DNA of 30,352 bases, from positions 1-30,352 of IMG/VR virus record IMGVR_UViG_3300022861_000085; one strand, written 5' to 3'. Every line of letters begins with the position of its first letter. Within the stretch, counting starts at the first letter, position 1. The notes beneath the pieces were generated by a model. It saw only the letters and a program-made list of their open reading frames with translations. It made no database searches and was not told where the DNA came from. This stretch comes from a virus. Both the position numbers and the translations under genes were made by a program. This document shows positions 2,392-28,192 of this stretch, piece after piece.

Positions 2392-3330
2392 TTATACCTC
2401 CGTCAATTCGAGTTTGGCTCCGTACACTTTTACGCCGTTGCCCCAGCCGATGTCGGCAATTTCAGGCAGCGATGAGAAGCGCACAAGGCAGCCCAGCGGC
2501 TGCGATCCAACCATGCGGCCGTAGGGCGTGAGCGGGGTGAGCAAGCTACAGCCCACCGTGTCCCATGAGACTGAGGCGGAGCCGTCAAGCGTGATGGCCG
2601 AGGCGGTGGAGTTGGCAAGCGTGGCGAGGAGACTCACTTTGAAGCTGGCCGCACTGGCTGGCACGGTGAACTGATAGCCGTACGTCTGCCAGCCGACGCC
2701 GATGGTTGCCGCCGTGCCGTTGACCGTTGACAGCGCGCCGCCGGCGGCATTCAAGTAAGACACGCTCACTTGCGCGCCAAGCACGCCCGCCGCCAGTGTG
2801 CCTTGGATCGCATCCAAAGCCGCTGTGAAGACGTAGACCTCACCGGGGGTACATGACACCGCCTGATCGCACGTGAGCGCGCCTGTGACGGTTGTGTTCG
2901 CGGCAATGGTCTTTGTGGCCACGGTTCTGAACTTGATTGCCTGGGTGCCGTCCGCAACCGGAGTAGTGCCGACGCCGATGGACTCCTGAGCCGGCGCGCT
3001 GGAGACGGCCCACCCAAAGACAAGATCGGCGGCGGTGAGCGCCGGAAATTCAAAGGACCAATTGGGCAAGAGGTTGGGAAAGAGAAAGCTGTTGCCGCCG
3101 CGCGCCGCGTAGCTGGGTGACATGAAGAACTCATCCAATGCGCGGATGTCTTCCGCTACGAGGTTGCGGACGTTGAACGGCCAGGTGCGGCGGGCGCGGG
3201 TACCACGCGGGCGTGTGGAGACATACCCGCTCTCCGCCGGATCGCGGATCGTGTCATCCTCGGTTTTCTTCGAGGTGTCCATCGAAGGTTGGCGCGAAAG
3301 TGACGGAAAGATGAGCGGGAATGTCGCCAT
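2392..3330 (-). CDS. Minor tail protein M-like, with an inserted carbohydrate-binding-like beta domain
   Basis: A 312-residue protein. Residues 18-85 (GYVSTRPRGTRARRTW, then a segment ending GGNSFLFP) match the usual start of gpM/DUF2460-type tail tip proteins, and the last 40 residues (VRFSSLPEIADI to the end) match the usual finish. Between them, about residues 86-268, lies an extra beta-rich domain that begins NLLPNWSFEFP and ends with alternating small and hydrophobic residues. That opening is typical of CBM4/9-like jelly-roll domains. The core is thought to cap the tape-measure end of the tail tip; a sugar-binding role for the insert is inferred. The start codon is close behind a GAGGG site and carries the leader motif described at 3335-3347. 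Confidence 0.72.
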   Translation of the reverse strand: MATFPLIFPSLSRQPSMDTSKKTEDDTIRDPAESGYVSTRPRGTRARRTWPFNVRNLVAEDIRALDEFFMSPSYAARGGNSFLFPNLLPNWSFEFPALTAADLVFGWAVSSAPAQESIGVGTTPVADGTQAIKFRTVATKTIAANTTVTGALTCDQAVSCTPGEVYVFTAALDAIQGTLAAGVLGAQVSVSYLNAAGGALSTVNGTAATIGVGWQTYGYQFTVPASAASFKVSLLATLANSTASAITLDGSASVSWDTVGCSLLTPLTPYGRMVGSQPLGCLVRFSSLPEIADIGWGNGVKVYGAKLELTEV

Positions 3331-3375
3331 ACCCTCACTGTGCGGCGATTACGGGAAAGGCCGCAAAATAAGGCT
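3331..3375. promoter_or_regulatory. Short divergent intergenic region with a conserved leader motif
   Basis: These 45 bases separate the minus-strand gpM-like gene from the plus-strand gpZ-like gene, so each unit needs its own 5' signals here or inside the opposite gene. The 13-mer TCACTGTGCGGCG at 3335-3347 recurs exactly at 12568-12580, at the same distance (4 bases) from the start of another late gene. I see no clear -35/-10 pair. Confidence 0.35.
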
Positions 3376-4092
3376 ATGCAACTCAAGGCGACGGTGGATG
3401 TAAGTGAAGCGGTGGCCGGATTGAACGATCTGCAAAAGAGGCAGATACCGTTTGCCATGGCCAAGACGTTGACGGGATGCGCGAAAGCCGGACAGACCGT
3501 GGTGCAAGAGAACCTGGGCGGCAAGTTCACACTCCGAAACAACTTCACACAGCAAGGCATCCGCATCAAGCCGGCGGAAAAGAATGGCGCGGTGATCGAG
3601 GCCGACGTTCACACGGACACGGCCAACCGGGCCACGGGCGCGCCGGATTACCTTTTGCCTCAAGAGGACGGCGGAGAGAAAGTTCCCCATGGCGGCCGTG
3701 AATACCTGGCTGTGCCTACCCGCTACTTACGTCGGATGTGCCCAGGCGTCATTCCCCAGGAGCTGAGGCCCCGCAACCTGCTGGGAGCCGTTGGAGGCCG
3801 CTACACGGCCATCACGCGCAAGAAAGGCCAGATCGCACTGCGCAACCAAAAGCAGGTGCGCGGCTTTGTCTTTTTCCTACAGGACATCTCAGATGGGCAC
3901 AAGGCCATCATGGGGCGGTATTGGACAGATCGGGACGCCTACCCGTTTTACCTGCTCATTCCGGAGGCGCACATCAAGCCAAGGCTCGAGATGCAACGGG
4001 ACGTGGAACGCGCCGCACAATCGGCCTTCCCGGAGCTATGGGCGGGCACATGGCGTCAGATCATGGCGCGCGGGTTGCGGATCACATCGTAA
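3376..4092 (+). CDS. Tail completion protein, gpZ-like, on the opposite strand
   Basis: A 238-residue protein. The start (MQLKATVDVSEAV) follows AAGG at 3370-3373; an in-frame GTG at 3340 has no ribosome site. The N-terminus has the helical pattern of gpZ/gp10-like neck and tail completion proteins: a segment about residues 5-25, a conserved small-residue helix, then LRNNFTQQGI. The C-terminus (YPFYLLIPEAHIKP, then a helix with VERAAQ) parallels the end of lambda gpZ. Such proteins normally act at the head-tail joint and are encoded just before the tail terminator. Here the gene lies beyond the tape measure and is inverted relative to all other structural genes. The assignment is moderate; it could be a related structural protein of unknown role. 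Confidence 0.55.
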   Translation: MQLKATVDVSEAVAGLNDLQKRQIPFAMAKTLTGCAKAGQTVVQENLGGKFTLRNNFTQQGIRIKPAEKNGAVIEADVHTDTANRATGAPDYLLPQEDGGEKVPHGGREYLAVPTRYLRRMCPGVIPQELRPRNLLGAVGGRYTAITRKKGQIALRNQKQVRGFVFFLQDISDGHKAIMGRYWTDRDAYPFYLLIPEAHIKPRLEMQRDVERAAQSAFPELWAGTWRQIMARGLRITS

Positions 4093-4138
4093 CGGTTGGG
4101 GTGTGTGGTAGACTGCGGTCGCACTACGGAGGGTAGGC

Positions 4139-4354
4139 GTGAACGGAAGCTCAGTGGATGGGATCGTTTTGGTTGGGTTGATCGCTGTACTTTATTTTCT
4201 ACCCTTATGGGTTGCGGCTTCCCGCCGCTGCAAGGCTGGCGCGGGCATCGGTGTGGTGAATATCTTCCTGGGATGGACGTTCATCGGATGGGTGGTTGCG
4301 TTAGCCTGGGCTGCATGTGGAGAGCAAAAGCCAAAAGAACTCCCCGCCGATTAG
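4139..4354 (+). CDS. Superinfection immunity protein (Imm-like small membrane protein)
   Basis: A 71-residue protein with a GTG start preceded by GGAGGG at about 4127-4133. It has two hydrophobic helices, about residues 8-27 and 36-62. The second carries the signature of the T4 Imm superinfection-immunity family (PF14373): NIFLGWTFIGWVVALAWA, after a first helix with LYFLPLWVAA. In T4, Imm sits in the inner membrane and stops DNA injection by a second phage. An exclusion role here is inferred from the family; host members of the family also exist. It lies 46 bases downstream of the gpZ-like gene, on the same strand. Its stop codon is inside the hairpin at 4341-4360. Confidence 0.8.
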   Translation: MNGSSVDGIVLVGLIAVLYFLPLWVAASRRCKAGAGIGVVNIFLGWTFIGWVVALAWAACGEQKPKELPAD

Positions 4355-4360
4355 CGGGGA
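4341..4360. terminator. Bidirectional hairpin overlapping two stop codons
   Basis: A perfect 7-bp inverted repeat, TCCCCGC (4341-4347) and GCGGGGA (4354-4360), with a 6-base loop CGATTA. The TAG stop of the plus-strand immunity gene (4352-4354) and the TAA stop of the minus-strand DUF2846 gene (4351-4353) both fall in it. The downstream T-tracts are weak: GTTCTTTTGGCTTTT on the minus side and hardly any on the plus side. It probably serves both converging genes. Confidence 0.55.
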
Positions 4361-4761
4361 TTGTCGCTCATTGGCTTGAGCTTGGCAATGTCAAACGTAC
4401 CCTGCTCTGGCATCACCATTGTCAGCCGAAAATGACCTTTCCAGAATCCGGTCTGAAGATCAGTCCGAAAGTAATACTCTTTCCCCGGCTCAAGTGTGAC
4501 AACCGCTCCAGCCTGTTTGTCATTGGCATAAAACGTGTGGGGTCCAGGCGAAAGCTTGACATCGAACACAGTGCCACCCTGAATTCTCCCGACCTCATCC
4601 CCATCGCAGTAAATCGAAGGCTTGAGGAGGCTGCCTACATATTGCTTATAGCGGTAAAAATGGACCGTGGCATCCGCAACAGTAGCCTGTTGCGCATCGC
4701 AGACAGCGCACAGGGAACAAAGGACACACAAGAACAACAGAGTTTTTCGCATGGCCAGCAT
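4351..4761 (-). CDS. Secreted DUF2846-like protein
   Basis: A 136-residue protein starting at ATG 4761, four bases after a GAGG site; a second ATG three codons later is possible, and the upstream in-frame ATG would overlap the tape measure. The N-terminus is a signal peptide: MRKT followed by about 15 hydrophobic residues, with cleavage probably near CDA/QQ. The lipobox is poor because V or L sits before the cysteines. The mature part (FYRYKQYVGS, SIYCDGDEVGRI, LSPGPHTFYANDKQAG, then GFWKGH and MPEQGTFDIAKLKP) follows the DUF2846 pattern. I associate this version with Acidobacteriota chromosomes. The molecular function is unknown. It lies just after the tape measure and converges on the immunity gene, so it looks like an added cargo gene. 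Confidence 0.68.
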   Translation of the reverse strand: MLAMRKTLLFLCVLCSLCAVCDAQQATVADATVHFYRYKQYVGSLLKPSIYCDGDEVGRIQGGTVFDVKLSPGPHTFYANDKQAGAVVTLEPGKEYYFRTDLQTGFWKGHFRLTMVMPEQGTFDIAKLKPMSDNPR

Positions 4762-4774
4762 TATACCTCGACCG

Positions 4775-6934
4775 CTAGTGACCAAACATCCCTGCGAATC
4801 CTTGCGTGATGGCTCCATTGGTTTCCTGATCTTTCAATACAATTTGCAGGATCATCGCTTCCGCCTGGCCGCTCGATTGTTGGGTCGAATCCACCTGTTG
4901 GGGCGTGCCCATGTTGTTCAGGATGACTTGTACGCCGCCCGTTCCCGATCCGGCACCCTTCCCTACCTGCAAGGCCCCAGCAGCCGGACTGAGCACGGTT
5001 CCCGCCCCGGCGGTGCCGGTCCCATTCGATATCGGGCCGGATTTCTTTCCAAACAGGCCCTTCAGTAAGCTCTCTGCGCCGCCGATCCCTTGACCCACCA
5101 GGCCGTTGTGCCCTCCGGTGCCCGCCCCGTGTGCGCCGCTGCCATCCCAGCCCTTGCCTCCGCGCCCGGAGGGATCGCCGAACAGCTCACCGAAAAGCTG
5201 AGACTCCGCCGTCTGCCCAATGTCTTTGAGCATGTTGGTACGAATCTGTTTCCACTGCCTATCCCACTTTTCGCCCAGGTCGAAGAGCGGATCGAACAGG
5301 CCATGCGCGAACTTTTCCGCCTCGTTATCGATGCTTTGGGCGTTGTTCTTAGATATTGGCGCAGCTATCAAAGAGTTCGCAGCAGCCTCGCCGCCTAATG
5401 ATGTTATCTGATTCTGCACTTCGTTTCGCTTTTTACTTGTATCCCCGCCGCGACTTTGGATTTGCTCCAACTCGTTCAAGAGGGCATTGAGAACCACTAT
5501 GTCGGCTGCATATTGCTTGGCGCGGATCGATGCTACCGCTTGGGCGGCGGCCTCCTCACTGATCGATTTAGCGGCCTTGTCGTGCTCGACGGCAGCCTCG
5601 GCAACCTTAGCGGTGGCAGCGGAACGCACCTCTGCTGCGGTCGCCTCCGCCTGAGCTGATTCCTCTTGCGCTTTGAGGGTATCTTCCCACGTCTTTGTAA
5701 TCGCCTCAGTAATGTGGTCATTCTCGCTCTGTGCGTTCTTGGCGTCCGCAATCGATTCGCTCACAAATTCTGAGGTGATCTTCTTTTGTTCTTGAGCGTT
5801 CTTAGTGGCTACCTCCTTGGTGAGTCGGTTGATTTCGTTTAACGCTTCCAAGTATTGAGATGAGCCACGCTGAAACGCACCAATTCTCTTTTGCCAAAAA
5901 GCTATCTCATCTTCGATGGACATAGCGTGCTGGCGTTGTTGCTCCGCAAGCGATGTGCGATCAGCCTGCATACGGGCACGACTCTGTTTCTCTAGCACCT
6001 CGGGATCAGTAGGCGGCAGTTTCGCCGGGCCAGTTGGATGCGCCGTCGAGCCGGCAAGATTTTGCGCCGCGTGAAGTTGTGCCAGGTATTCATCGAGCGG
6101 GTGTTTGCCATCATCGGAAAGCCAGTGCCACATGTCTTTTGCCGAGGCGATGATGGTATCCATACCCTCGGAGAAATCGTTGACATAGGCGGTGATAACC
6201 GGGGCTGCTGTGCCGGTGATGGTGAGGCTTAGACGCTTCCATGCGGCGTCTAGATCGTTCAGGGCGTGGTGCATGTCCTCCATTTTCTTGAGGTCATCCT
6301 CGCTGAAAATGGGTGCCTCCGATTTCATTTTCTCAAGAGCCTCCGATCCTTGATTCAAAATCGGAATCATGTCCTGGCCGGCCTTGCCAAAGAGCTTGAC
6401 GGCGGCAACGTTCTTTTCGATGCCATCGGGCATCTGTTGAAATTTATCGGCAACCAACTCCATTACGCCGTACATGTCATTGCCCTTGGTTTTTACTTCT
6501 TCGGCGGAGATGCCAAGGATTTTGAAGCCCTCAGAGAGCTTGCCGGCGTCCGTCTCATGAATGGCCTCGGCAAGTTTCTTTCCCGATTTCGCCACCGTCT
6601 CAAACTCAACACCGCTGGCGGCGGCGGCGTACTTGAGCACCGAAAGGCTATCTGTCGAGATCCCGGTTTGTTGATGGAGTTTGCCTATCTGTACGCCGGC
6701 CTCCATCGTAGAGGTGACCATTTCCCTTAAGCCGTTGACAACCTCTCCGATGCCAACCGTGATGCCGGCATATTGGAGGCCCTGCATCAAGCTCTGTCCG
6801 ATACCTGCAAGGGAACTGGAAGCCTCTTTGGCTTTCGCCTCAGTCTCATCCAAGTGTCTCTTGATTGCGTTGAAGACTTCGCCGGTTTTGTCTTCGCCGG
6901 ATACGACAACGATCACGCCGCCCTTACTTGCCAT
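4775..6934 (-). CDS. Tail tape measure protein
   Basis: A 719-residue, largely helical protein. The N-terminal third has the standard tape-measure start: a VSGEDKTGEVFNAI segment, a hydrophobic Gly-rich stretch near 45-75, and the GISTDSLSVLKYAAAASGVEFE segment near 90-112. The centre (about 310-510) is rich in Glu, Lys, Gln and Ala and should form coiled coils. The C-terminus is Gly-rich. The protein sets tail length and is ejected with the DNA. By the usual rule of about 0.15 nm per residue the tail would be near 100 nm, which fits a siphovirus. The start overlaps the chaperone gene by 11 bases. Confidence 0.92.
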   Translation of the reverse strand: MASKGGVIVVVSGEDKTGEVFNAIKRHLDETEAKAKEASSSLAGIGQSLMQGLQYAGITVGIGEVVNGLREMVTSTMEAGVQIGKLHQQTGISTDSLSVLKYAAAASGVEFETVAKSGKKLAEAIHETDAGKLSEGFKILGISAEEVKTKGNDMYGVMELVADKFQQMPDGIEKNVAAVKLFGKAGQDMIPILNQGSEALEKMKSEAPIFSEDDLKKMEDMHHALNDLDAAWKRLSLTITGTAAPVITAYVNDFSEGMDTIIASAKDMWHWLSDDGKHPLDEYLAQLHAAQNLAGSTAHPTGPAKLPPTDPEVLEKQSRARMQADRTSLAEQQRQHAMSIEDEIAFWQKRIGAFQRGSSQYLEALNEINRLTKEVATKNAQEQKKITSEFVSESIADAKNAQSENDHITEAITKTWEDTLKAQEESAQAEATAAEVRSAATAKVAEAAVEHDKAAKSISEEAAAQAVASIRAKQYAADIVVLNALLNELEQIQSRGGDTSKKRNEVQNQITSLGGEAAANSLIAAPISKNNAQSIDNEAEKFAHGLFDPLFDLGEKWDRQWKQIRTNMLKDIGQTAESQLFGELFGDPSGRGGKGWDGSGAHGAGTGGHNGLVGQGIGGAESLLKGLFGKKSGPISNGTGTAGAGTVLSPAAGALQVGKGAGSGTGGVQVILNNMGTPQQVDSTQQSSGQAEAMILQIVLKDQETNGAITQGFAGMFGH

Positions 6935-7679
6935 CGGTTACACCGTCCTTTTCTGATTGTGCCCTGAATGCGGTTACCAGCGCACGTGCTTTAGCTTCGT
7001 CGCTCTCGAACACCGGCGCGGGCGTGCTGCGGCGCTTGCGGCCCATAAGCATGTCCGGTGTGAGAGGATCGGCGTCCTGTTTCTTGTGGGGAAGTAAGAG
7101 CCAGCTCACCATCCATGCGGACTCCTCACGGCGTTCGCGCGTCTCGCGCTTGTGACGGGCGGAGCGGCCCTCGAGAATAAGAATCAACTCGCTGTATTGG
7201 AGCCGATAGAACGCATCGGGCGCGAACCCCAGCTCACCACAGACGATGCGGAAAGCATCTTCCCATGTGGTTTGCTTGCGCGCGGCGCGCTTCGATTTAG
7301 CGGGCTTGGAGTTCGCCTGGGAAGCTCCGCCGTAATACTGATTGAGGGCACGGCGGATTGCCAAAACGCCTTGCTCCGCCCAGTTATGCCGCTCACTCAA
7401 CCATCGCAAGTCTTCCATGGTGAGCGTCTCGCTGTGCGCCTTTGCGTCCTCTTGCAGCGCCGCCCACAGGTAGAGACGGAGGTTGTCTTCATTGACGGCG
7501 AGCGCCCACTCCCGCTCACCCGTGGCCGGGTTGATGCGGTGGCCCACCTCTTCCCAGGCCGGGGCCTCTTTACCGCCGGCGTTGCGAATCAGTATCTCGG
7601 AGCCAAGATTGATTTCCACGCGCCGGCGGCGGTCGAAGTCAACAAAGATCGGTTCTTTGTAGAGCACTACGTTTTGCAT
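6924..7679 (-). CDS. Tail assembly chaperone, two domains fused in one frame
   Basis: A 251-residue protein directly before the tape measure. Residues 1-120 match a first chaperone domain (NLRLYLWAALQEDA, then TMEDLRWLSERHNW). A basic linker follows at about 124-138 (SKPAKSKRAARKQ). The second part has TWEDAFRIVCGELGFAPDAFYRL and a helical region with YSELILILEGR. In lambda and HK97-like phages these two parts (gpG and the T extension) are made as G and G-T by a programmed -1 frameshift. Here both are in one continuous frame. They bind the tape measure and recruit the tail tube. A GAGG site lies 5 bases before ATG 7679. The gene follows two hairpins that may lower its expression relative to the tail tube. 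Confidence 0.75.
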   Translation of the reverse strand: MQNVVLYKEPIFVDFDRRRRVEINLGSEILIRNAGGKEAPAWEEVGHRINPATGEREWALAVNEDNLRLYLWAALQEDAKAHSETLTMEDLRWLSERHNWAEQGVLAIRRALNQYYGGASQANSKPAKSKRAARKQTTWEDAFRIVCGELGFAPDAFYRLQYSELILILEGRSARHKRETRERREESAWMVSWLLLPHKKQDADPLTPDMLMGRKRRSTPAPVFESDEAKARALVTAFRAQSEKDGVTDGK

Positions 7680-8551: not shown

Positions 8552-9004
8552 TCACAACTGAGAGCCGTACGTCTTATTGATTGACGGGTCATTCCGTCCT
8601 ACCTCTACTTCAACCCGGATCGTCATATCCACGCAAACTTGGTCGCTTGCAGACTTGTCCACGTAACCGATTTCGATGTTATCGACGTAGACATCTTCGA
8701 CAAGCTGGCCGAGGGTAGGATCGATGCGGATGCGTTGCCATGCCCACAGCACGATAGGATCGGCGGCCAGGTCAACTTCGCTGGTTGCGGCGATGCTGGC
8801 GCGTACCACCATCGTGGCGTCGATCTTTACGGAGTCCTGGGCGCATTCGTACTTGCAATCGATCTTGGTGGGGTATAGGTTGCCGGCGGTTTCAGTGTTG
8901 TCCACCGCCTCAAAGCGCGCCCGGTAGAACGTAGCGGGCGCGCCGTGGGCGTTGAGTGTGGTCATGATGGCCGTTGCGGCCTGGGTCCAAATGGTCTGAG
9001 CCAT
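8552..9004 (-). CDS. Tail terminator protein (gpU-like)
   Basis: A 150-residue protein directly upstream of the tail tube gene. It has an N-terminal helix (WTQAATAIMTTLNA), then beta strands with RARFEAVDNTETAGNLYPTKIDCKYE and VVRASIAA, and a C-terminal strand VDMTIRVEVEV. The size and place match tail terminators, which cap the tube and join it to the neck. The sequence similarity is weak, so the call rests on position and general fold pattern. The start has GGAG about 7 bases upstream. The 17-base gap to the tail tube gene holds that gene's ribosome site. Confidence 0.55.
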   Translation of the reverse strand: MAQTIWTQAATAIMTTLNAHGAPATFYRARFEAVDNTETAGNLYPTKIDCKYECAQDSVKIDATMVVRASIAATSEVDLAADPIVLWAWQRIRIDPTLGQLVEDVYVDNIEIGYVDKSASDQVCVDMTIRVEVEVGRNDPSINKTYGSQL

Positions 9005-9057: not shown

Positions 9058-9456
9058 TTAAAAGGCGGCGCTGTACGCTTCATCGGGAACTTTGGCCGGG
9101 CTTGAGTCCTTGCTATCGAGCAAGACAAGCTCCTCAGCAACGATGTTGGTTTTCCAGCGCTTCTGTTGGGTGTCGTCTTCCCAGGAGATGGTGCGCAGGC
9201 GGCCGGAGATGTAGACCTTGGAACCTTTGCGGAGATAGTCACGGGCGATTTCAGCCAGGCGGCCAAAGAGGATCACCGAATGCCACTCGGTGTGATCTTC
9301 CCACTGCGGCCCCGCCTTATCGCTGTTGGGAACTTTCTTCCGTTCGTTGGTTGCGATGGAGACCGTCGTCCGCAACGTTCCATTTTGCGATGCTTTGGTT
9401 TCCGGCGGCTGGCCTACGTTGCCCAACAGGGTGACTGAGTTCACGCTCTTGCTCAT
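9058..9456 (-). CDS. ssb: Single-stranded DNA-binding protein
   Basis: A 132-residue OB-fold SSB. The pattern is clear: SVTLLGNVGQPPETK, TTVSIATNER, HTEWHSVILFGRLAEIARDY, LRKGSKVYISGRLR, and a basic TQQKRWKTNIVAEELVLL segment. The start chosen is ATG 9456 (MSKSVNSV), with AGGA upstream; the longer frame would need a TTG at 9474. SSBs coat single-stranded DNA in replication and recombination. Two points are odd. The gene lies among neck and tail genes instead of the replication region, and the C-terminus ends DEAYSAAF in place of the usual acidic tip ending in IPF, which binds partner proteins. Confidence 0.9.
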   Translation of the reverse strand: MSKSVNSVTLLGNVGQPPETKASQNGTLRTTVSIATNERKKVPNSDKAGPQWEDHTEWHSVILFGRLAEIARDYLRKGSKVYISGRLRTISWEDDTQQKRWKTNIVAEELVLLDSKDSSPAKVPDEAYSAAF

Positions 9457-9515
9457 GGTTGACGTTCCTTTCAACGTGCAACATTCGATTCGTTAATCCG
9501 GTTTGCATGAATGCC

Positions 9516-9818
9516 TCATGTGCGCTTGAGATACAGCTCTGTAACCTGCATGTCGCGCGATTCAGGCAGGGAGTGGACGGTGTACGAGACACCGCCCACA
9601 GTGATGGGGTCAAGAGGTTTGGGCGTGGCCGTGAAAGCGTTGTACGGGATGTGCAGCACTATCGTGTTGCGCTCGAATCCGCCGGGGCCTCCGCCGTGTG
9701 AGAAAACATCGCTAGATGTATCAAGGATTCCGTTCACGGCCGGCTCGTTATTCCAGATCACTGGAGACTGTTGGCCAAAGTCATCGAAGAATACGTGCAG
9801 ATCGGAATCACCAAACAT
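9516..9818 (-). CDS. Head-tail joining protein (gpFII-like)
   Basis: A 100-residue protein with a beta-rich pattern: VNGILDTSSDVFS, then FERNTIVLHIPYNAF, then DPITVGGVSYTVHSL and a final TELYLKR strand. This order of strands (a GI-D segment, an isolated strand, a G-V-Y strand and a closing L-L strand) is what I expect of FII-type connectors, which bind the portal complex and receive the tail. It lies between the capsid gene and the tail genes, where such a connector belongs. Alternative: another small neck protein. Confidence 0.5.
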   Translation of the reverse strand: MFGDSDLHVFFDDFGQQSPVIWNNEPAVNGILDTSSDVFSHGGGPGGFERNTIVLHIPYNAFTATPKPLDPITVGGVSYTVHSLPESRDMQVTELYLKRT

Positions 9819-10475: not shown

Positions 10476-12563
10476 TTAGCTGATTGCGATGTAGGGGTTG
10501 GCAACGAAAGCCGCAACGTGCCGGCAAGCGATGTCGTGCAGCGCGCGCTGGGTGACAACAATCGCGCCACTGGCGGCCTGGGTGTACGGATCGACGACCA
10601 CCTCACGCGCGCCCCAATCGGCAACGATCAACTGGCCCCAATCGCCAAACACGGCGTTGTGCAGGATGGAGCCGGTTACGCCCGCCTTGGTTCCGTTCTT
10701 GGCAAGCTGGTTGGTGACGGCCGCGCGATAGCCGGCGGGGCCTTGCGTGTCGATGCCCAGCGGGTCCTTGGGGCCGTCATCCCAGATCGGGAGAGCATAG
10801 CCGGATGCAAACTTCGGCGTTGCCTTGAGCTGGGCGCGTACTTCCGGCGTGAACATGAATCCGGAGGTGGCCACATCCGCGTTGGCGGCTGCAACGGTGG
10901 ATTCAAATGCCAGAATGTCAGCCCAGGTGAGCGGCTTGCCGCCATCACCGAATGCAGTACCGGAAGGCGAAAGCAGCGTGAGGCCGGTGAGGTTCATCAG
11001 GCCAACCGGGTTTGCGCCGCCGGTGGGACCACTGAGCGCGGCCAGGTCAAGGGCCAACAGAATCACCCTGTCCTGATCGGCGCGGGCCAGGCCCTCGATG
11101 TCGGGCGCGGTTTCCGCCAACAGTTCCACGGTCCATGCGGTCTGCGTCGAGATGCGGTGCGGGGTCACGGAAATAAAATCCATGGAGAGATCGGACGGAG
11201 TAACAGCCGCGCCCTCACCCACCCACTGCGCAGTGCCGGCACCGGACTGACGAGGCAACCGGATAACTCCGGTCAACCCACCCAGGCGGCGCGCGCCAAG
11301 CTGCTCAACGCGCGGACGATTGCGCAGAATCTCGATGACTTCCGGCCGCGTGTAGGTGGCTACGGCGGCGGCTTCGGAGGTTACCGCAATCTGGCCGGCT
11401 CCGCTACCGATGCCCTGCGTACCGAGAGCGCGCGACATGGAATCCGGAATCAGCGGGCCTTCCGTGGTGATCTTGAGGCGCTTTTTCAGTTCATCGCTGA
11501 ACTCACGCTCCAAGGCCGCATCGCAGAGAGACGCGGAAAACGAGCCGGGGCGGGCCGCATTGGTGAGTGAACGAACCAACCGGAACACGGAGAACCGCTT
11601 CTGATCAGACTTATCCATCTCGCCGAAAAGGTTGGTGCCGGCGGTGCCCACCTTGCTGGCATCGTTAGCGGCGCAAATCTTGCGCGAGACCAGATCGCGG
11701 AACTTGTCCGAGGAGGTGTTATCGGCGATGGCTTTCTGGGCCTCGTCAATGGTGACGTACTTGCGGAAATCGGAATCGGTCGCAACGGCCATGATGTCAT
11801 TGCGCCGCGCAAGCTCAAGTTCCGCTGCGGTTTTCTCAGCCGTTTCGGCCATGTTTCTTTTCTCCTGTGCGGGTGGAACAACGATTGCGGGTTGTGCAGC
11901 GGGAGCCGGATCGGCGCTCCGCCGCAAGACGGTTTCAAACTCAACCGGGAAATCTTGGTCACCGGACTCGGAGCGACCTTGGCCCACGGTGGGATCGGCG
12001 GGCACGGTGACAAGCGATCCGTCGAACGGTTCCCAATCGCGGACCTCGCAGCGGGCAATGCAATCACATGTGCTATCGCTGCAATTAGCGCAATCTCCGG
12101 CCTTGCACTCGTCGCAATCGCAAGTGCAATCCGGGTCCGCAGTGCGCACCATCTTGTGAACGCGATAACCCACCGAGGCGGAAGTGAGAATCTTGTCGTC
12201 GTAGTCCTGGCGCTTTTCCTGCGCAAACGCCGAGCGGCTGAACGGCCCCTCAACCACAAGCCGGCCGTCTTTGATTTCGTACTTATCTACAATGCCGAGC
12301 TGTTTGTTGGGGTCGTGATTGAAGTTATTGGGAACCTGGCCGGAATCGAGGCGCTCTGTGCGAATGCTCTTCTTATCGTGCTGAAGAACCTCATTGCCCG
12401 GACCAAACCAATAATTCCGCTGGTAAGGGGTTTCACTGGAGACGGCAAAGCGAAACCGGCCCGGATCGGGGCCGGACAGCCGTTCGCCCTCTTTCGGCTC
12501 CGCGTCTATTTTTGCGGCCCGATACTGCATCGGAAGCGCCGCCGGTATGCTCTTAGTGCTCAT
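10476..12563 (-). CDS. Prohead protease fused to major capsid protein (HK97 fold)
   Basis: A 695-residue protein starting at ATG 12563; a GTG at 12611 is less likely. Residues 1-195 form an HK97-type (S78) prohead protease: His83 in FNHDPNKQLG and Ser130 in SASVGYRV, then WEPFDGSLVTVPADP. A segment with nine cysteines (146-172) interrupts it. A Pro/Ala linker (215-235) and a helical delta-like region follow. The HK97 capsid domain occupies about 330-695, with VEQLGARRLGGLTGVIRLPR, WVGEGAAVTPSD and DWGQLIVADW. The protease normally trims scaffold and capsid inside the prohead and then destroys itself. A ribosome site and ATG at 11852 could give the capsid part alone (458 residues). Confidence 0.9.
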   Translation of the reverse strand: MSTKSIPAALPMQYRAAKIDAEPKEGERLSGPDPGRFRFAVSSETPYQRNYWFGPGNEVLQHDKKSIRTERLDSGQVPNNFNHDPNKQLGIVDKYEIKDGRLVVEGPFSRSAFAQEKRQDYDDKILTSASVGYRVHKMVRTADPDCTCDCDECKAGDCANCSDSTCDCIARCEVRDWEPFDGSLVTVPADPTVGQGRSESGDQDFPVEFETVLRRSADPAPAAQPAIVVPPAQEKRNMAETAEKTAAELELARRNDIMAVATDSDFRKYVTIDEAQKAIADNTSSDKFRDLVSRKICAANDASKVGTAGTNLFGEMDKSDQKRFSVFRLVRSLTNAARPGSFSASLCDAALEREFSDELKKRLKITTEGPLIPDSMSRALGTQGIGSGAGQIAVTSEAAAVATYTRPEVIEILRNRPRVEQLGARRLGGLTGVIRLPRQSGAGTAQWVGEGAAVTPSDLSMDFISVTPHRISTQTAWTVELLAETAPDIEGLARADQDRVILLALDLAALSGPTGGANPVGLMNLTGLTLLSPSGTAFGDGGKPLTWADILAFESTVAAANADVATSGFMFTPEVRAQLKATPKFASGYALPIWDDGPKDPLGIDTQGPAGYRAAVTNQLAKNGTKAGVTGSILHNAVFGDWGQLIVADWGAREVVVDPYTQAASGAIVVTQRALHDIACRHVAAFVANPYIAIS
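11850..11866 (-). promoter_or_regulatory. Internal ribosome-binding site and ATG for the capsid part
   Basis: On the minus strand AGGAG (11866-11862) lies 9 bases before an in-frame ATG (11852-11850) at residue 238 of the fusion, at the junction between the protease linker and the delta-like region. It looks like a working start for a separate capsid product. This recalls lambda C and Nu3, where the in-frame internal start makes the scaffold. Confidence 0.55.
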
Positions 12564-12607
12564 AACTTCACTGTGCGGCGGAATGGAAAAAGCCCGCCAA
12601 TTTCGGA
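12564..12607 (-). promoter_or_regulatory. Leader of the protease-capsid gene with the repeated motif
   Basis: On the minus strand CGCCGCACAGTGA (12580-12568) is followed four bases later by the ATG. The same 13-mer stands in the same position before the gpM-like gene. The GTGAAG next to the start is a weak ribosome site. No convincing promoter elements are visible. Confidence 0.4.
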
Positions 12608-13291
12608 TCACACAGTGATGAGCATTTCCTGGCTGAGCCGCTGAGCTGCGATTTCGCAGTAACGCTCCTCGCGCTCAATGCCGATGGCAGACAAGCCCAG
12701 GGCCTTGGCCGCTTCTAACGTGGTGCCACTGCCCATGAATGGATCGAGCACGGACTTACACGTATCGGGCGCTTGCAGGATGGCCCAGCGCATCACGTCT
12801 TGCGGTTTCTGCGTTGGATGTGTGCGCACATCTTTGCAGCCGGGCTGCACAAGAAACCCATTCCATCGATAAGCGATCCGGCGCACGGCTTTGTTGAGAT
12901 TGGTCCAAGCCAGTTCGCAATCGGCAAAGTCTGTATTGCCGCGCAACTTATCCCACACCAGCCAGCACTTGGAAGGTGGGAGTTGAAAGTAATTGCCGCC
13001 AAAGATGATCTGGTACGGCGCGCATGAGCGGATGAGGTCTATCAGCTCCGCATCGGGCGGAGAATCGTCCCAAGCACCGTCGCCGTAATCACGTTTGGCA
13101 ATCATCTTGCCGGCCGCCAAGCCGGTGTGGTGTTGCTTGACGCCGTGGCCGCCAAACTTATGTCGCGCCGCGCCGATGCCGTACGGCGGATCGGTGCAGA
13201 GGAGAGCAGCTTTTACGCTGCCCCCCCTTAACACCTCGCGACAATCCCCGCAATAGATGGTGATACCCGCGTGCTCATAGTACGGAGTCAT
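12608..13291 (-). CDS. DNA adenine-N6 / cytosine-N4 methyltransferase
   Basis: A 227-residue protein with the amino-methyltransferase motifs in the order IV then I: DPPYGIG at 34-40 as the catalytic motif, and VLDPFMGSGTTLEAA near 180-195 as the SAM-binding motif, followed by GIEREERYCEIAAQRL. This order fits the beta class. It would methylate adenine N6 or cytosine N4 in a short target; the target cannot be read from sequence. No matching restriction gene is present, so it looks like an orphan phage methylase that may shield phage DNA from host restriction. It is placed between head genes, 15 bases after the small secreted protein. Confidence 0.9.
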   Translation of the reverse strand: MTPYYEHAGITIYCGDCREVLRGGSVKAALLCTDPPYGIGAARHKFGGHGVKQHHTGLAAGKMIAKRDYGDGAWDDSPPDAELIDLIRSCAPYQIIFGGNYFQLPPSKCWLVWDKLRGNTDFADCELAWTNLNKAVRRIAYRWNGFLVQPGCKDVRTHPTQKPQDVMRWAILQAPDTCKSVLDPFMGSGTTLEAAKALGLSAIGIEREERYCEIAAQRLSQEMLITV

Positions 13292-21207: not shown

Positions 21208-22380
21208 CTAATTCTTCAACTTGTCCAGCCAATCAGCCCATGCTTGCAGCATCTCGGCTCTTTGCTTGGCATATTGGGCGCGGTTGTAAACACCACGCAC
21301 ACCCTTGAGCTTGTGATTGAGCGCCTTCTCAATCACGTCGGTGTTGTACTCTTGCTCACTCAGGTTGGTGGCTGCTGTGCGACGTAAGTCATGCACTGTA
21401 AAGTGTTCTATCTTCACAGGGATACGGCTCAACGCACGGTTGAGTGTGCTGGCTGCAATCGGTGTGTGATCGGCGGCGCGCATGGGAAACACAACGCTTG
21501 CGCGTGGATGCCGTTCGCGCTGTGCTCTCAGCAACTCCAATACCTGCCGTGGCAACGGCACGACAAGCGGCGTGTCTGTCTTGCTGTGCGCTTCCGGCAA
21601 AGCCCATTCCGCCTTGTCCAAATCGAACTCATCCCAGCGCGCGCGCCGTGCCTCGCCTTTGCGTGTCAACGTCAACAAAATGAACCACAAAGCTGCTTTC
21701 AGATCGGGGCGAATTCGGGCCATTTCAAGAGCTTTGAGAAACGCTGTGAGTTCGCCTGGCTTCAACGCTCGATTGCGTTCGCTCATCTCCGCCACAAACT
21801 TGGCTGGGATCGCGCTCAACGGATTCTTATCCGCAACGCCTCGCACAAGCGCGTAATCCCACAATCTTTTCAGCAAGTTACGGATAGCCAGCGCGCTTTG
21901 CGGCTTGCCCTCTTCGACGCGCTTGAAGATCAACTCCCGCACATCGTCTGTGTGGATCGAGCCGATTGCCCGGTTGCCGATCACCGGATACACGTCTCGC
22001 TCTAAATACCGGCGCATGGGCGCAATATCCCGCCTCCGTCGCTGCACATGCCCGGTCAAATACTTCTCGCCGAACGCTTTAACGGTTTCGCCGCGCTCTT
22101 CCGCAAGTTTTTCCTTGCGCCGCTGTTCGGCTGGAGATGTTCCCTCAGAGATGGCCGATAACAGCACGTCGCGCCTCTGTCGTGCGTCCGCAGGGCTCAG
22201 GTGAGGGAATCCACCCAGATTTATCTCTGTGCGCCGTCTACGGAGCGTGTAGCGCAAACGCCAAGTCTTTCTTCCGCTCGGCTGCACTTCCAAAGCCAGG
22301 CCTCGCCCATCTGTGACCTTGTAACGCTTCGCTTGAGGCTCCAATGCGCGGATTCGGGCAACTGTAAGGTTGTTTTTCAT
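21208..22380 (-). CDS. int: Tyrosine recombinase / integrase (P4 type)
   Basis: A 390-residue protein from ATG 22380; an ATG at 22431 would add 17 residues. It has the DUF4102-type arm-binding start (KRYKVTDGRGLALEVQPSGRKTWRLRY), a SAM-like core-binding domain (SIHTDDVRELIFKRVEEGK), and a catalytic domain with Arg in LTLTRKGEARRARWDE, HDLRR (His-x-x-Arg), LNHKLKGV (His), and the YNRAQY segment with the nucleophile Tyr. P4-type integrases mostly recombine at tRNA genes, and a tRNA-Arg gene lies 132 bases upstream. The gene is on the same strand as the rest of the phage. Confidence 0.95.
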   Translation of the reverse strand: MKNNLTVARIRALEPQAKRYKVTDGRGLALEVQPSGRKTWRLRYTLRRRRTEINLGGFPHLSPADARQRRDVLLSAISEGTSPAEQRRKEKLAEERGETVKAFGEKYLTGHVQRRRRDIAPMRRYLERDVYPVIGNRAIGSIHTDDVRELIFKRVEEGKPQSALAIRNLLKRLWDYALVRGVADKNPLSAIPAKFVAEMSERNRALKPGELTAFLKALEMARIRPDLKAALWFILLTLTRKGEARRARWDEFDLDKAEWALPEAHSKTDTPLVVPLPRQVLELLRAQRERHPRASVVFPMRAADHTPIAASTLNRALSRIPVKIEHFTVHDLRRTAATNLSEQEYNTDVIEKALNHKLKGVRGVYNRAQYAKQRAEMLQAWADWLDKLKN

Positions 22381-22473
22381 CTCTGGTAGCCATTGTGGTA
22401 ACCAAATCCCGAAACCGCGCAAGAAAGCCATTGTTTTCTAGGGCTGTCCATTTCTAGGTAGAGAAAATTCCCG

Positions 22474-22641: not shown

Positions 22642-23411
22642 TCAATCTTCGGTCAGAAGCTCTTTGAGCCGGAGCGCAATGGCGTAGGGTATCTGCGGAA
22701 TTACTGAGTTTCCGTACGGTGAAACAAGCCGTCTGACCATCCCGACGGAAAGCCCATCGCTATGCGGTAGGCGTTGTATAGCTGCCGGAAGTTCGCTCCA
22801 CCTTCCAATAGCGTTGTGGCTAAACTGGGAGAATGCCGCCGTCGCTGGCTCAAGAACGCCTTGCCTGAAGAAACATCCCGCCCATCGCGTTTCGCGGGGG
22901 TAGGCAACGATCCATATCCTGTCTCTTTGGTGATCCGCGCCAACGGAACACGCTGGAATGCACTCCCATTCTGCGTCATACCCGCCCTCGGCCAAGGTTC
23001 CGAGTACACGCCCCAATCCCCGGTTAAGCAGAGCTGAGACGTTTTCCATGACAACTGCTCTTGGTCGTAACTCGCGAATGATTCTTGCCATGTGGAAGAA
23101 CAAGCCGGATCGCTCTCCGTCAAGCCCACGGGCCTCGCCCATCCAACGTTGGCAATGCTGAGGTCTTGGCAAGGGAAGCCGCCGGCGATAACATCAACCC
23201 TTTGGAGGTTTCTCCCCCCCCCGTATCGCACGTCTGTAACTTTTCTGTTTGCATGTGGGAAATTCGTCCTCAAGATGCGGCGGCAATCCGCGTTCTTTTC
23301 TACCTGCCAAACGGTTGTGAATCCGGCGCGCTCAAAGCCGAGATCGATACCACCGATCCCGGCAAAGGAGCTGCCAAGGGTTAGCGTTGAGGTAGTCTTT
23401 CCCGTTGTCAC
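22642..23411 (-). pseudogene. Cytosine-C5 DNA methyltransferase with a frameshift
   Basis: Two overlapping frames together make a whole C5 methyltransferase of about 257 residues. The first part, from GTG 23411 (GTGA overlap with the Gp37/Gp68 gene and GGAG 8 bases upstream), holds motif I (SSFAGIGGIDLGFERAG) and motif IV (GGFPCQDLS, catalytic Cys). The second part, ending at 22642, holds GLDGERSGLFF, motif VI (VVMENVSALL), motif VIII (QRDRIWIVAYP) and motif X (YGNSVIPQI). The frame must change by -1 near the GGG at 23140-23138, where one lost G explains it. A run of nine G lies upstream at about 23214-23222. It may be a sequencing error, a true mutation, or a switchable gene. The recognition part is short. 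Confidence 0.7.
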
Positions 23412-24310
23412 TTGGGAAACTCCATCCACTCATGTCTATCAAGTAGGTTACCGGCCGCTTTCTTGCCGACGTAACTCATGCACCGCTCAAGTGGGATTCC
23501 GCGCGCCTTCGCAATGCTTGGATCGGTGGTTGGCACCCATTCGCCCCACTGCTTGAAAAAGAATGGTATGCCGGCATGGGTGCATTGATCCCTCAACCGC
23601 CGCGCCCAATCCGCTTGCATCTGGCGTGCATCGTGGCCGCTCTCACCGCCCACGATCACCCATCCAATCAGCGGGCGGTCATTGATACGCGCCGTGGTCA
23701 GGTCCACCGCGCAATCATGGCCGGCGAGTTGGTTGGGTCCTGGCAGTTGAACCAACTGAAGATCGATTTCACCGACCAGCGGTTCGCAGCTCACAAAGAA
23801 CGGCAGGCAGTTCCGCACCGTCAACCGAAAGTCAAGAGCGATCTTTGCACGCTCTTCCCAGCGCGTCTGATCCTCAGCCGTGAATCCAAGGCGCACATGC
23901 GCGGGCCAATCGGAAAGCCAATGCGCGGGCAGGTACTTGAACCAATTCTCCGGCCGTTTCGTGAGCAATAAGAAATCAAGCCCATGAGCGCAACTTTCAA
24001 TCTCAAGCCAAAGCCGCTCACGCGCGTCAACCGGAGCCTCTGCATCGAACACATCGGCGAGTGAGGCCACAAACACGCGGCGGCGCACTCTCTCTAACAT
24101 CGCCTTACGGTCCCACTTGCGGAGCTGTGCCCAGTTGCCGTCGCTTGTGATGCGCCGCTCTGTGCCCGGCCCCCATGCGCCGCCATTCCACTTGTGAAAG
24201 TTGTTCTGCGTTTCTGCGTAGCAGTGCTGGCAGCCAGGCGATACGCGCGTGCAGCCGATCCACGGGTTGAACGTGTGATCGCACCACGCAATTTTCGTAA
24301 CTTCACCCAT
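23408..24310 (-). CDS. Phage Gp37/Gp68 family protein (DUF5131)
   Basis: A 300-residue protein from ATG 24310, with GAGGG upstream. The start shows the family pattern IAWCDHTFNPWIGCTRVSPG followed by CQHCYAE, with cysteines at about 10, 20, 27 and 30. Further on are RRVFVASLADVFDAEAP, LLLTKRPENW, LGFTAEDQTRWEER, FVSCEPLVGEI, WVIVGGESG and FFFKQWGEW. The cysteine cluster and fold pattern are thought to place the family near radical SAM enzymes, but I know of no established reaction. Its start overlaps the ASCH-like gene's stop by one base and its stop overlaps the methyltransferase start, so the three are probably expressed together. Confidence 0.88.
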   Translation of the reverse strand: MGEVTKIAWCDHTFNPWIGCTRVSPGCQHCYAETQNNFHKWNGGAWGPGTERRITSDGNWAQLRKWDRKAMLERVRRRVFVASLADVFDAEAPVDARERLWLEIESCAHGLDFLLLTKRPENWFKYLPAHWLSDWPAHVRLGFTAEDQTRWEERAKIALDFRLTVRNCLPFFVSCEPLVGEIDLQLVQLPGPNQLAGHDCAVDLTTARINDRPLIGWVIVGGESGHDARQMQADWARRLRDQCTHAGIPFFFKQWGEWVPTTDPSIAKARGIPLERCMSYVGKKAAGNLLDRHEWMEFPK

Positions 24311-24981
24311 CACGCACCCTCTTTCACGCGGCGCAAGGTCAACGCCCATAGCCACGGGTTTTCGTCCCATCCAAATCCGCGTTTCGCGTTGAGAGAATCC
24401 CACAGCTTAGCAAATGAAGTCCGGGCATTTCCGTACACAAAGCCGTGGTTGATGTCATGCCTCCATCCGCTGTGCCCGATGCCGCCGCCGTCATGGAATA
24501 GAGCGCCCTCAGCTTGCGCATCTTCCTCTGTGATTTCCTGCAACCGCTGCACACGAACATTGGTAATCTCAAGCGTGATCCGAGAAAACCTGCGGAACAT
24601 GAAGATTGACGGACGCCATTTCGCACCATTGAGCAATGTTCCGCCGTCTGCGGCATACACGCACTGTTCGGGGCCTTCGGTCATTCCCTCTGACGTGTAG
24701 GTTTTGCAGCGCCACGCGAAGTATGTTTCTTTCACCCAGAGCCGGTCGCCTACTTCTCCGAACGGGCAGACAAGAAGATGCTTCAAACTTTCAACCGTCC
24801 ACGGGACACGAATGATGCTTTTTTCACCCACTGTGTCGTATCCGTCCGGTCCAAAGCAATTGCGGCTTTGTTCTCTGTTGCCTACCGTGTCAAAGTTGAT
24901 TACTCGCCGCGTGTTCGTCTTGCGATCTTCAAGGAATGCGCGGACCATCGGGCCGCTGAATAAGATGGGACGTTCTTTCAT
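24310..24981 (-). CDS. ASCH/PUA-like phage protein
   Basis: A 223-residue protein. The N-terminus (KERPILFSGPMVRAFLEDRKTNTRR) and the later parts (CPFGEVGDRLWVKETY, WRPSIFMFRRFSRITLEI, VRVQRLQEITEEDAQAEG, FAKLWDSLN, WDENPWLWALTLRRV) fit the ASCH-like proteins often found in phages. ASCH folds are related to PUA domains and are thought to bind RNA or modified bases. The actual substrate is unknown. AAGGGAG lies before ATG 24981. The gene sits in one coupled unit with DUF5131 and the C5 methyltransferase. Confidence 0.8.
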   Translation of the reverse strand: MKERPILFSGPMVRAFLEDRKTNTRRVINFDTVGNREQSRNCFGPDGYDTVGEKSIIRVPWTVESLKHLLVCPFGEVGDRLWVKETYFAWRCKTYTSEGMTEGPEQCVYAADGGTLLNGAKWRPSIFMFRRFSRITLEITNVRVQRLQEITEEDAQAEGALFHDGGGIGHSGWRHDINHGFVYGNARTSFAKLWDSLNAKRGFGWDENPWLWALTLRRVKEGA

Positions 24982-27022: not shown

Positions 27023-28192
27023 TCACACCCTCATGGGCATCACGACGTAACCCAGCGTTTCGCCCTCGTGCGGGGTGGCCTTGATGAGCAACGGCGATTG
27101 ATTGGTGTCCGGTAGAGAGATGGTGATTTCGCCGTCAAGCCGCTTGACCAGGTCGGTCAGATACGCGCCGTTGACGCCGATGTATAGCTTCTGTTGCGGG
27201 TGACCTTTGCAGTCCACCGTTTCCGTAGCTTCGCCGCTCTGGCTGCTTGACGCCTCGATGGTGATCTGTTCATCGAACGTGAGCCGAACGCATCCCGAGC
27301 GTTCATCGCTGAGCAGCCCGCACCGCTCAAGGCTGGCAAGCATCTCTTTGGCGTTGACGGTGATTTCCGTGCGCTTTCCGGAGGGCATCACCGCTTCCCA
27401 GTTGGGAAACTGTCCGGTCAGTTTGGTTGACGCCACATAGACCCGCATGTCCGCGTCAATGCTGGAGAGAATCATCCGGTCGCTGAAGCACAGATCGACG
27501 CCGCCGTCTTCATCGTTGAGCAGCGGCAACAGAGCCTTGATGAACCGGCTGGGCAGTAGCAGAGTTATTTTCTCTGTGCATGGAAGCGTGTACGCCATGA
27601 GGCGGTGTCCGTCCGTGGCCACAAGCCGCAACCGCTCACCGTCACCTTGTAGCAGCACGCCGTTGAGCGTGTAGCGCGATTCCTCCTGGCACACAGCGAT
27701 CATGACAAAGCGCAGAGCGCGCGCAAAGTCACCCTGGGTGAGCGTGATGCCCTCGGCCTTCATTCCGTACACTTCATTGCTGGGCCAGCTCGCCGCCGGC
27801 ATCACCGGAAGCACGGCGCGCGAACGGCCGCATTGCATCGTGGCGCGCCGATCCGTGGCGCTGATCTTCACATCGTCACCGGCCAGGAGCTTTGTCCATG
27901 CGGTGAATTTCTCCGCAGGGATCACAACCGGCTTTTCAGGGCCGCCCAGCTCTTTCACAACCGCGCGAACATACACGTTAAGGGTCGTTGCTTCGAGCGC
28001 CAGGCCGTCCGGTATTTGCTCCATGCGGACGCATTGGAGAATCGGGATGGTGGCCGTACGTTCAATGGCCATGCCCACAATCTTGAGCGCCTGTTTCAGA
28101 TTGCTCAGAGAGATGGCCGCTTTCATAGGTGCGGCTTCCGGCGTCTCCGCCGCTTTCTTGGCCGCTAACTCTGGACTTACTGCTGTTGCCAT
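27023..28192 (-). CDS. dnaN: DNA polymerase III beta sliding clamp
   Basis: A 389-residue clamp. All three domains are present: ISLSNLKQALKIVGMAIERTATIPILQ at the start, TLNGVLLQGDGERLRLVATDGHRLMAY in the middle (the classic clamp signature) and the C-terminal end YVVMPMRV. It forms a ring on DNA that holds polymerases. It has about 22 extra residues at the N-terminus (Ala/Glu/Pro-rich) compared with usual clamps; this start has AAGGAG upstream, so it seems real. A phage clamp suggests a partly independent replisome. Few temperate siphoviruses encode one. Confidence 0.95.
   Translation of the reverse strand: MATAVSPELAAKKAAETPEAAPMKAAISLSNLKQALKIVGMAIERTATIPILQCVRMEQIPDGLALEATTLNVYVRAVVKELGGPEKPVVIPAEKFTAWTKLLAGDDVKISATDRRATMQCGRSRAVLPVMPAASWPSNEVYGMKAEGITLTQGDFARALRFVMIAVCQEESRYTLNGVLLQGDGERLRLVATDGHRLMAYTLPCTEKITLLLPSRFIKALLPLLNDEDGGVDLCFSDRMILSSIDADMRVYVASTKLTGQFPNWEAVMPSGKRTEITVNAKEMLASLERCGLLSDERSGCVRLTFDEQITIEASSSQSGEATETVDCKGHPQQKLYIGVNGAYLTDLVKRLDGEITISLPDTNQSPLLIKATPHEGETLGYVVMPMRV

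What the first reader, a model, noticed from the sequence alone, without database searches (positions are those of the whole stretch)
3376..4761. Inverted island inside the tail operon: gpZ-like gene, superinfection immunity and a DUF2846 cargo gene
All other late genes run on the minus strand. Here two genes run on the plus strand and meet a third head-on, with one hairpin over both stops. One of the two plus-strand genes looks like an essential tail part, the other blocks superinfection in its family, and the third looks bacterial. Having an essential structural gene in the same transcript as an exclusion gene would link exclusion to late expression, or the gpZ-like gene may be misassigned.
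Basis: partly seen in the sequence, partly recalled or inferred. Interest (0 to 1): 0.62.

Follow-up and report, generated by a model that had tools for sequence, protein, structure and literature searches.

The report
Inverted tail gene flanking moron slot
In a family of temperate phages of soil Acidobacteriota, a tail-completion gene sits backwards in the tail operon, and the spot just behind it is a docking site for swappable small membrane proteins and phage-defence genes; in this phage the cargo is a superinfection-immunity gene plus a small secreted protein.

Summary
Z (3376-4092, +) and a superinfection-immunity gene (4139-4354, +) run against the late strand and meet a DUF2846 gene (4351-4761, -), with one hairpin over both stops. 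It is not a local accident. In every sufficiently complete relative with this tail module (about 35 viral contigs and 3 prophages of Acidobacteriota, down to about 45% identity in Z) Z lies inverted between the tape-measure gene and gene C. The one exception, L029, has Z in the same slot on the late strand and looks derived. Z belongs to the lambda gpZ tail-completion family by profile. The usual gpZ place (FII-Z-U) holds an SSB gene or nothing, so the inverted gene is the only candidate. The space between Z and the tape-measure stop is a variable cargo slot. It is empty in four relatives. Elsewhere it carries immunity proteins, other small membrane or secreted proteins, a BRCT-like protein, or a whole restriction-modification system. 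Cargo usually has its own promoter-like site starting at Z's stop codon, so exclusion need not be tied to late expression. Gene C has its own upstream element, shared with the capsid gene. Verdict: a real, conserved new variant of a known kind (moron / defence hotspot).

The parts
3376..4092 (+). Z: gpZ-type tail completion protein gene, inverted
   Evidence: phrog_1924 4e-26; hhalign of family profile with lambda gpZ E 2.9e-6, six controls negative; dN/dS about 0.1; AF2 pLDDT 82
4109..4114 (+). TAGACT, -10-like hexamer of the cargo promoter, 17 nt after the Z stop (preceded by TGG, extended -10 type; no good -35 in this copy)
4139..4354 (+). superinfection immunity (Imm, PF14373) small membrane protein, GTG start
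   Evidence: PF14373 1.1e-13; phrog_1039 4.2e-20; hydrophobic segment KD 2.57
4341..4360 (.). hairpin over the overlapping stops; T-rich tail on the minus strand only, so a likely terminator of the late-strand transcript
4351..4761 (-). DUF2846 secreted protein, on the late strand (start 4761, or 4752 if TATAAT is the promoter)
   Evidence: PF11008 34.4 bits vs cut-off 34.3 from start 4752; dN below dS
4760..4765 (-). TATAAT, the only TATAAT/TATACT on either strand of the window, just before ATG 4752
3328..3373 (-). about 45-bp conserved element upstream of gene C, also found upstream of the capsid gene; likely promoter or leader of gene C
12561..12606 (-). second copy of the same element, upstream of a capsid-gene start at ATG 12563
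   Evidence: nhmmer E 2.4e-6; sequence; same place in relatives
4775..6934 (-). tape measure protein, right flank of the slot
   Evidence: phrog_8462 2.9e-28, phrog_9570 6.1e-21
2392..3330 (-). gene C (tail-tip side, lambda M position), left flank
   Evidence: conserved neighbour in all relatives
9058..9474 (-). SSB gene in the place where lambda has Z (between FII 9516-9818 and U-like 8552-9004)
   Evidence: PF00436 1.7e-29, PF05354 2.4e-7; phrog_4204
21208..22431 (-). tyrosine integrase: phage is probably temperate
   Evidence: PF00589 6.8e-23

Best explanation
Z is the phage's tail completion protein (lambda gpZ type), moved from its usual place beside the tail terminator to the slot behind the tape-measure gene and fixed there in reverse orientation, most likely before the cargo arrived. 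Because Z and the tape-measure gene converge, the gap between their stops is a neutral landing site, where accessory genes inserted without breaking a late gene. Most cargos have a sigma-70-like promoter whose -10 lies just after the Z stop, so they can be expressed in the lysogen. In this phage the cargo is an Imm-type membrane protein that most likely blocks DNA entry of superinfecting phages, plus a small secreted DUF2846 protein facing it. The hairpin between them stops the late-strand transcript, and gene C restarts late transcription from an element also found before the capsid gene. Shown: anatomy, conservation, family matches, variable cargo, enrichment of the -10 motif, repeated element. 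Inferred: expression in lysogens, the exclusion phenotype, Z in the virion, and the promoter/terminator roles.
For: Z inverted between C and TMP in all relatives with this module except L029. gpZ family: phrog_1924 matched by 68/68 and phrog_27 (tail completion/Neck1) by 28/68; hhalign to lambda gpZ E 2.9e-6 with gpU, FII, V, M, HK97 gp10/gp11 and T5 p143 as non-matches. No other Z: SSB or nothing between FII and U. Empty slot in L022, L038, L039, L107. Cargo set including MTase + Vsr + MvaI/BcnI + Imm in L020. -10 enrichment 9 vs 0.08; TTGACA-16-TATACT in L019 and L042. Most cargo has a hydrophobic N-terminus or TM. Element before C and MCP. Integrase in the window and 13 of 14 relatives; prophages in Acidobacteriota genomes.
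Against: The window's own cargo promoter is weak (TAGACT, no proper -35), and L014, L028, L036, L037 lack a clear -10, so read-through from Z is possible there. No clear sigma-70 promoter was found upstream of Z. Pfam PF06763 is below its cut-off (16.4 vs 23.9 bits). No expression or phenotype data. The C/MCP element could act in translation rather than transcription. The hairpin is missing in most relatives.
Confidence: 0.75

Rival explanations
1. Z and cargo form one transcript, so exclusion is co-expressed with a late structural protein: Z's promoter drives both in the late phase.
For: Same strand, only 46 nt apart in the window; weak -35 in the window copy.
Against: -10 motif between Z and cargo in most relatives; Z exists without cargo; cargo changes independently of Z, e.g. 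Imm 98% but Z 81% identical in L016.
Confidence: 0.2
2. Z is itself a lysogenic cargo gene (a tail-derived decoy or exclusion factor) and not the virion's tail completion protein.
For: Off the late strand, beside exclusion genes; tail-targeting prophage defences are known (PMC10884400, PMC11364771; abstracts only).
Against: Z is the constant part while cargo varies; it remains when the slot is empty; no other gpZ candidate in the late operon; dN/dS about 0.1.
Confidence: 0.12
3. Z is an invertible (phase-variable) segment; L029 shows the other orientation.
For: L029 has Z co-directional in the same slot and nests among inverted relatives.
Against: No inverted repeats flank Z in the window; one exception only, in one 4.5-kb contig; cargo would have to flip or be lost as well.
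Confidence: 0.03

Closest known systems
Lambda gpZ / tail completion protein (TCP, Neck1) family
   Same: Profile homology over most of the length; AF2 topology (long N-terminal helix, beta region, C-terminal helix) fits the description of TCPs in PMC11661146.
   Different: Known TCP genes lie between head completion and tail terminator genes on the late strand (PMC11099176); here it lies behind the tape measure gene, inverted.
HK97 gp15 moron (superinfection exclusion) and other morons
   Same: Small gene inserted among tail genes; HK97 gp15 is annotated as a moron just before the tape measure gene and known as a superinfection exclusion protein (Cumby 2012, cited in PMC11436027).
   Different: HK97 gp15 is on the late strand; here cargo is on the opposite strand, behind an inverted core gene, in a slot used by many unrelated cargos.
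P2/P4 defence hotspots (PMC9122126)
   Same: Fixed core neighbours with swappable anti-phage cargo, including restriction-modification.
   Different: Hosts are Acidobacteriota phages; the slot is inside the tail operon between convergent genes; most cargo is small membrane proteins of unknown function.
T4 Imm (PF14373)
   Same: Domain match above cut-off; small membrane protein; T4 Imm inhibits DNA injection (PMC11436027).
   Different: Temperate phage, moron setting; activity untested.

Membership tests
gpZ-type tail completion protein | Profile homology to the family | tested here: met
   phrog_1924 4e-26, phrog_27 in 28/68 members; hhalign to lambda gpZ E 2.9e-6, controls negative
gpZ-type tail completion protein | Pfam PF06763 curated cut-off (a detection threshold, not a biological trait) | tested here: inconclusive
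   16.4 bits vs 23.9
gpZ-type tail completion protein | Fold of the family | tested here: inconclusive
gpZ-type tail completion protein | Usual gene place between head completion and tail terminator genes (typical context, not required for membership) | tested here: not met
   SSB or nothing there; Z lies behind TMP, inverted
gpZ-type tail completion protein | In virions and needed for infectivity | not testable with these tools
   needs mutant and mass spectrometry
Imm superinfection immunity (PF14373) | Domain above curated cut-off and membrane segment | tested here: met
   51.3 vs 27.9 bits; KD 2.57
Imm superinfection immunity (PF14373) | Blocks DNA entry of a second phage | not testable with these tools
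   phenotype assay needed
moron locus | Present or absent between core genes of relatives | tested here: met
   empty in 4 relatives, different cargo in others
moron locus | Own promoter | tested here: met
   motif enrichment 9 vs 0.08 across relatives; weak in the window copy; not shown experimentally
moron locus | Own terminator | tested here: inconclusive
   hairpin in window, L016, L005; T tail only on the minus strand
moron locus | Expressed from the prophage | not testable with these tools
   RNA-seq needed
phage defence hotspot | Fixed neighbours and exchangeable known defence genes | tested here: met
   C5 MTase, Vsr, MvaI/BcnI in L020; Imm in at least nine relatives
DUF2846 (PF11008) | Curated cut-off | tested here: met
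   34.4 vs 34.3 bits from start 4752, 33.9 from 4818: borderline

The most novel reading that the evidence does not exclude
The tail completion gene was moved next to the tape-measure and tail-tip genes and fixed in reverse because the protein acts at the tail tip (as reported for T5) or needs low-level expression separate from the late operon; its converging end then became a dedicated defence/exclusion loading dock expressed in lysogens.
Probability: 0.2. Interest if true: 0.72.

Novelty: new variant of a known kind. Interest (0 to 1): 0.5.

Why it matters
Where tail completion proteins sit and how they act is disputed: inside the neck in 80alpha (PMC11661146), on the side of the tail tip in T5 (PMC11784142). 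A phage family in which the gene has left the neck cluster for the tape-measure/tail-tip border is a natural comparison. It also gives a simple route by which phages gain exclusion and defence genes without breaking the late operon (a convergent 'dock'), and a fixed address at which to mine unknown small membrane exclusion proteins of Acidobacteriota phages, a little-studied group.

Tried and rejected
PDB sequence search gave nothing. NCBIfam gave no hits. Flanking inverted repeats for a flip mechanism: none. The consensus promoter scan of the window alone found no significant promoters; the signal only appears by comparison of relatives. I first suspected the 45-bp element was Z's promoter; it stays with gene C in L029 and recurs before the capsid gene, so it was reassigned to C. 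A call to a non-existent RNA model and two malformed paper calls gave nothing; SPP1 was not held under the accession tried.

Full report
Observation. Late genes named by Pfam or PHROGs are all on the minus strand: head-tail joining, portal, capsid, FII, tail terminator, MTP position, TAC, tape measure, C, L-like, NlpC/K-like. The hairpin has a T-rich tail only in the minus direction, so it more likely ends the tape-measure/DUF2846 transcript than the Z/Imm transcript.

Identity of Z. Z matches phrog_1924 ('minor tail protein') over its full length, E = 4e-26. All 68 members of a family alignment match phrog_1924, and 28 match phrog_27, 'tail completion or Neck1'. A profile of the family aligns to lambda gpZ over 179 columns, E = 2.9e-6, probability 88%; lambda U, FII, V and M, HK97 gp10 and gp11 and T5 p143 give nothing. 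HK97 gp10 and T5 p143 are themselves tail completion proteins (PMC11099176), so the test places Z on the lambda gpZ branch and does not show kinship with the whole superfamily. The AF2 model (pLDDT 82.4) has a long N-terminal helix, a beta region and a C-terminal helix, as PMC11661146 describes for TCPs. Z evolves under purifying selection, dN/dS about 0.1 to 0.2.

Its normal place is vacant. Lambda has FII-Z-U. Here FII (PF05354) is followed by an SSB gene (PF00436, 1.7e-29) and then the tail terminator. In L008 FII and U are close neighbours with about 220 bp between their matches and no room for Z, and in L107 the SSB gene lies before FII, leaving FII and U adjacent. The inverted gene is therefore the only gpZ candidate found.

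Conservation of the inversion. Relatives from IMG/VR, from GTDB genomes (Acidobacteriaceae TAA 166, an Acidobacteria MAG) and from a further genome of that bacterial family (L107, in a 5.36-Mb contig) have A-B-C on one strand, Z on the other, then the tape measure gene. Z identities run from 95-100% to about 45%. Several of these contigs are short or near-copies of each other, and a few end before the tape measure gene. L029 is the single exception: tape measure-Z-C-L-K all co-directional, Z starting 2 nt after the tape measure stop, no cargo. In the Z tree L029 pairs with inverted L028 (support 88/94) and it keeps the element before C, so it looks like a reversion, although a lone 4.5-kb contig could be misassembled. 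L023 (Terriglobus MAG) has Z ahead of TAC and tape measure on the same strand. More distant homologues mostly sit upstream of terminase, and in L073 directly behind the tape measure gene. The family is thus mobile in its gene place.

The slot. Between the Z stop and the tape-measure stop, L022, L038, L039 and L107 have essentially nothing. Two of these are deep prophages, which suggests that the inverted Z predates the cargo. Elsewhere the slot holds Imm-type genes (window, L010, L015-L017, L020, L024, L025, L030, L036, L037), other small proteins with N-terminal hydrophobic segments, a protein with a weak BRCT-like match (L005/L006), and in L020 a C5 methyltransferase, Vsr-like nuclease and MvaI/BcnI-type endonuclease plus Imm. 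All cargo identified is on Z's strand except DUF2846. Convergent stops overlap by exactly 4 nt in 9 of 14 junctions checked. L016 carries Imm 98% and C 94% identical to the window but Z only 81%, so Z and cargo are exchanged separately.

Expression signals. TATACT is rare in these genomes, 24 in 636 kb of strand sequence, yet 9 of the 24 lie within 130 nt after a Z stop where 0.08 would be expected. Related contigs are not fully independent, but the cargos differ. In L019 and L042 it is a perfect TTGACA-16-TATACT, the -35 overlapping the Z stop in L019. The window has TAGACT with a TG before it and no good -35. The only TATAAT/TATACT in the window precedes ATG 4752 of the DUF2846 gene. A 45-bp element upstream of C recurs upstream of the capsid gene in the window (E 2.4e-6) and near the capsid start in most of eight relatives, from E 8e-9 (L098) down to hits too weak to count alone. 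I read this as a second late start that lets the tail-tip genes escape the interruption; a translational role is not excluded.

Lifestyle and host. The window has a tyrosine integrase, as do 13 of 14 relatives, and the same module sits in Acidobacteriota genomes. Only 3 of 200 genomes drawn from the family of TAA 166 had a match, one of them a distant homologue near terminase, so such prophages are not common there.

How it most likely works. Z is made as a virion part, perhaps at low level from its own start. In the lysogen, cargo is made from the promoter behind Z. Imm-type proteins would sit in the inner membrane and stop incoming DNA, as reported for T4 Imm (PMC11436027). None of these activities was tested here.

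Comparison with the known. Morons between tail genes (HK97 gp15) and swappable defence hotspots (PMC9122126) are known; TCPs are known. New as far as I could find is the combination: a relocated and inverted tail completion gene as fixed border of a cargo dock inside the tail operon. The paper searches turned up no description of it, but the library holds open papers only. The gene's new address at the tape measure/tail-tip border fits the T5 report that the TCP is at the tail tip (PMC11784142) and not obviously the 80alpha report of a TCP in the neck (PMC11661146); this is suggestive, not evidence of location.

Noticed in passing
L020 6858-10014: Complete-looking restriction-modification set (C5 methyltransferase, Vsr-like nuclease, MvaI/BcnI-type endonuclease) plus Imm in the same slot of a related phage.
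   Followed up: partly
window 22642-23429 (-): C5 cytosine methyltransferase match split over two overlapping frames (profile 6-77 and 71-169 of 324): looks frameshifted or broken.
   Followed up: no
window 27023-28192 (-): Phage-encoded DNA polymerase III beta clamp (all three Pfam domains), alongside the SSB gene in the head-tail region.
   Followed up: no
window 6924-7679 (-); L008, L010, L014, L018-L020: Tail assembly chaperone is one 251-aa frame in the window but two adjoining frames in many relatives, which suggests a programmed frameshift there and a fused form here.
   Followed up: no
window 10476-12611 (-): Capsid protein appears fused to its maturation protease (711 aa; matches to both families); real start probably ATG 12563.
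   Followed up: no
records of L010, L016, L017, L027, L033, L039: Two or more tyrosine integrase matches in one phage record, often near opposite ends.
   Followed up: no
L005 6748-7254, L006 6727-7254: Cargo protein with a weak BRCT-like match (DNA ligase phrog, PDC-S48) and, by eye, a WYL-like second half also seen in L014.
   Followed up: partly
window 23408-24403 (-): DUF5131 protein, strong match (4.6e-69), next to the split methyltransferase.
   Followed up: no
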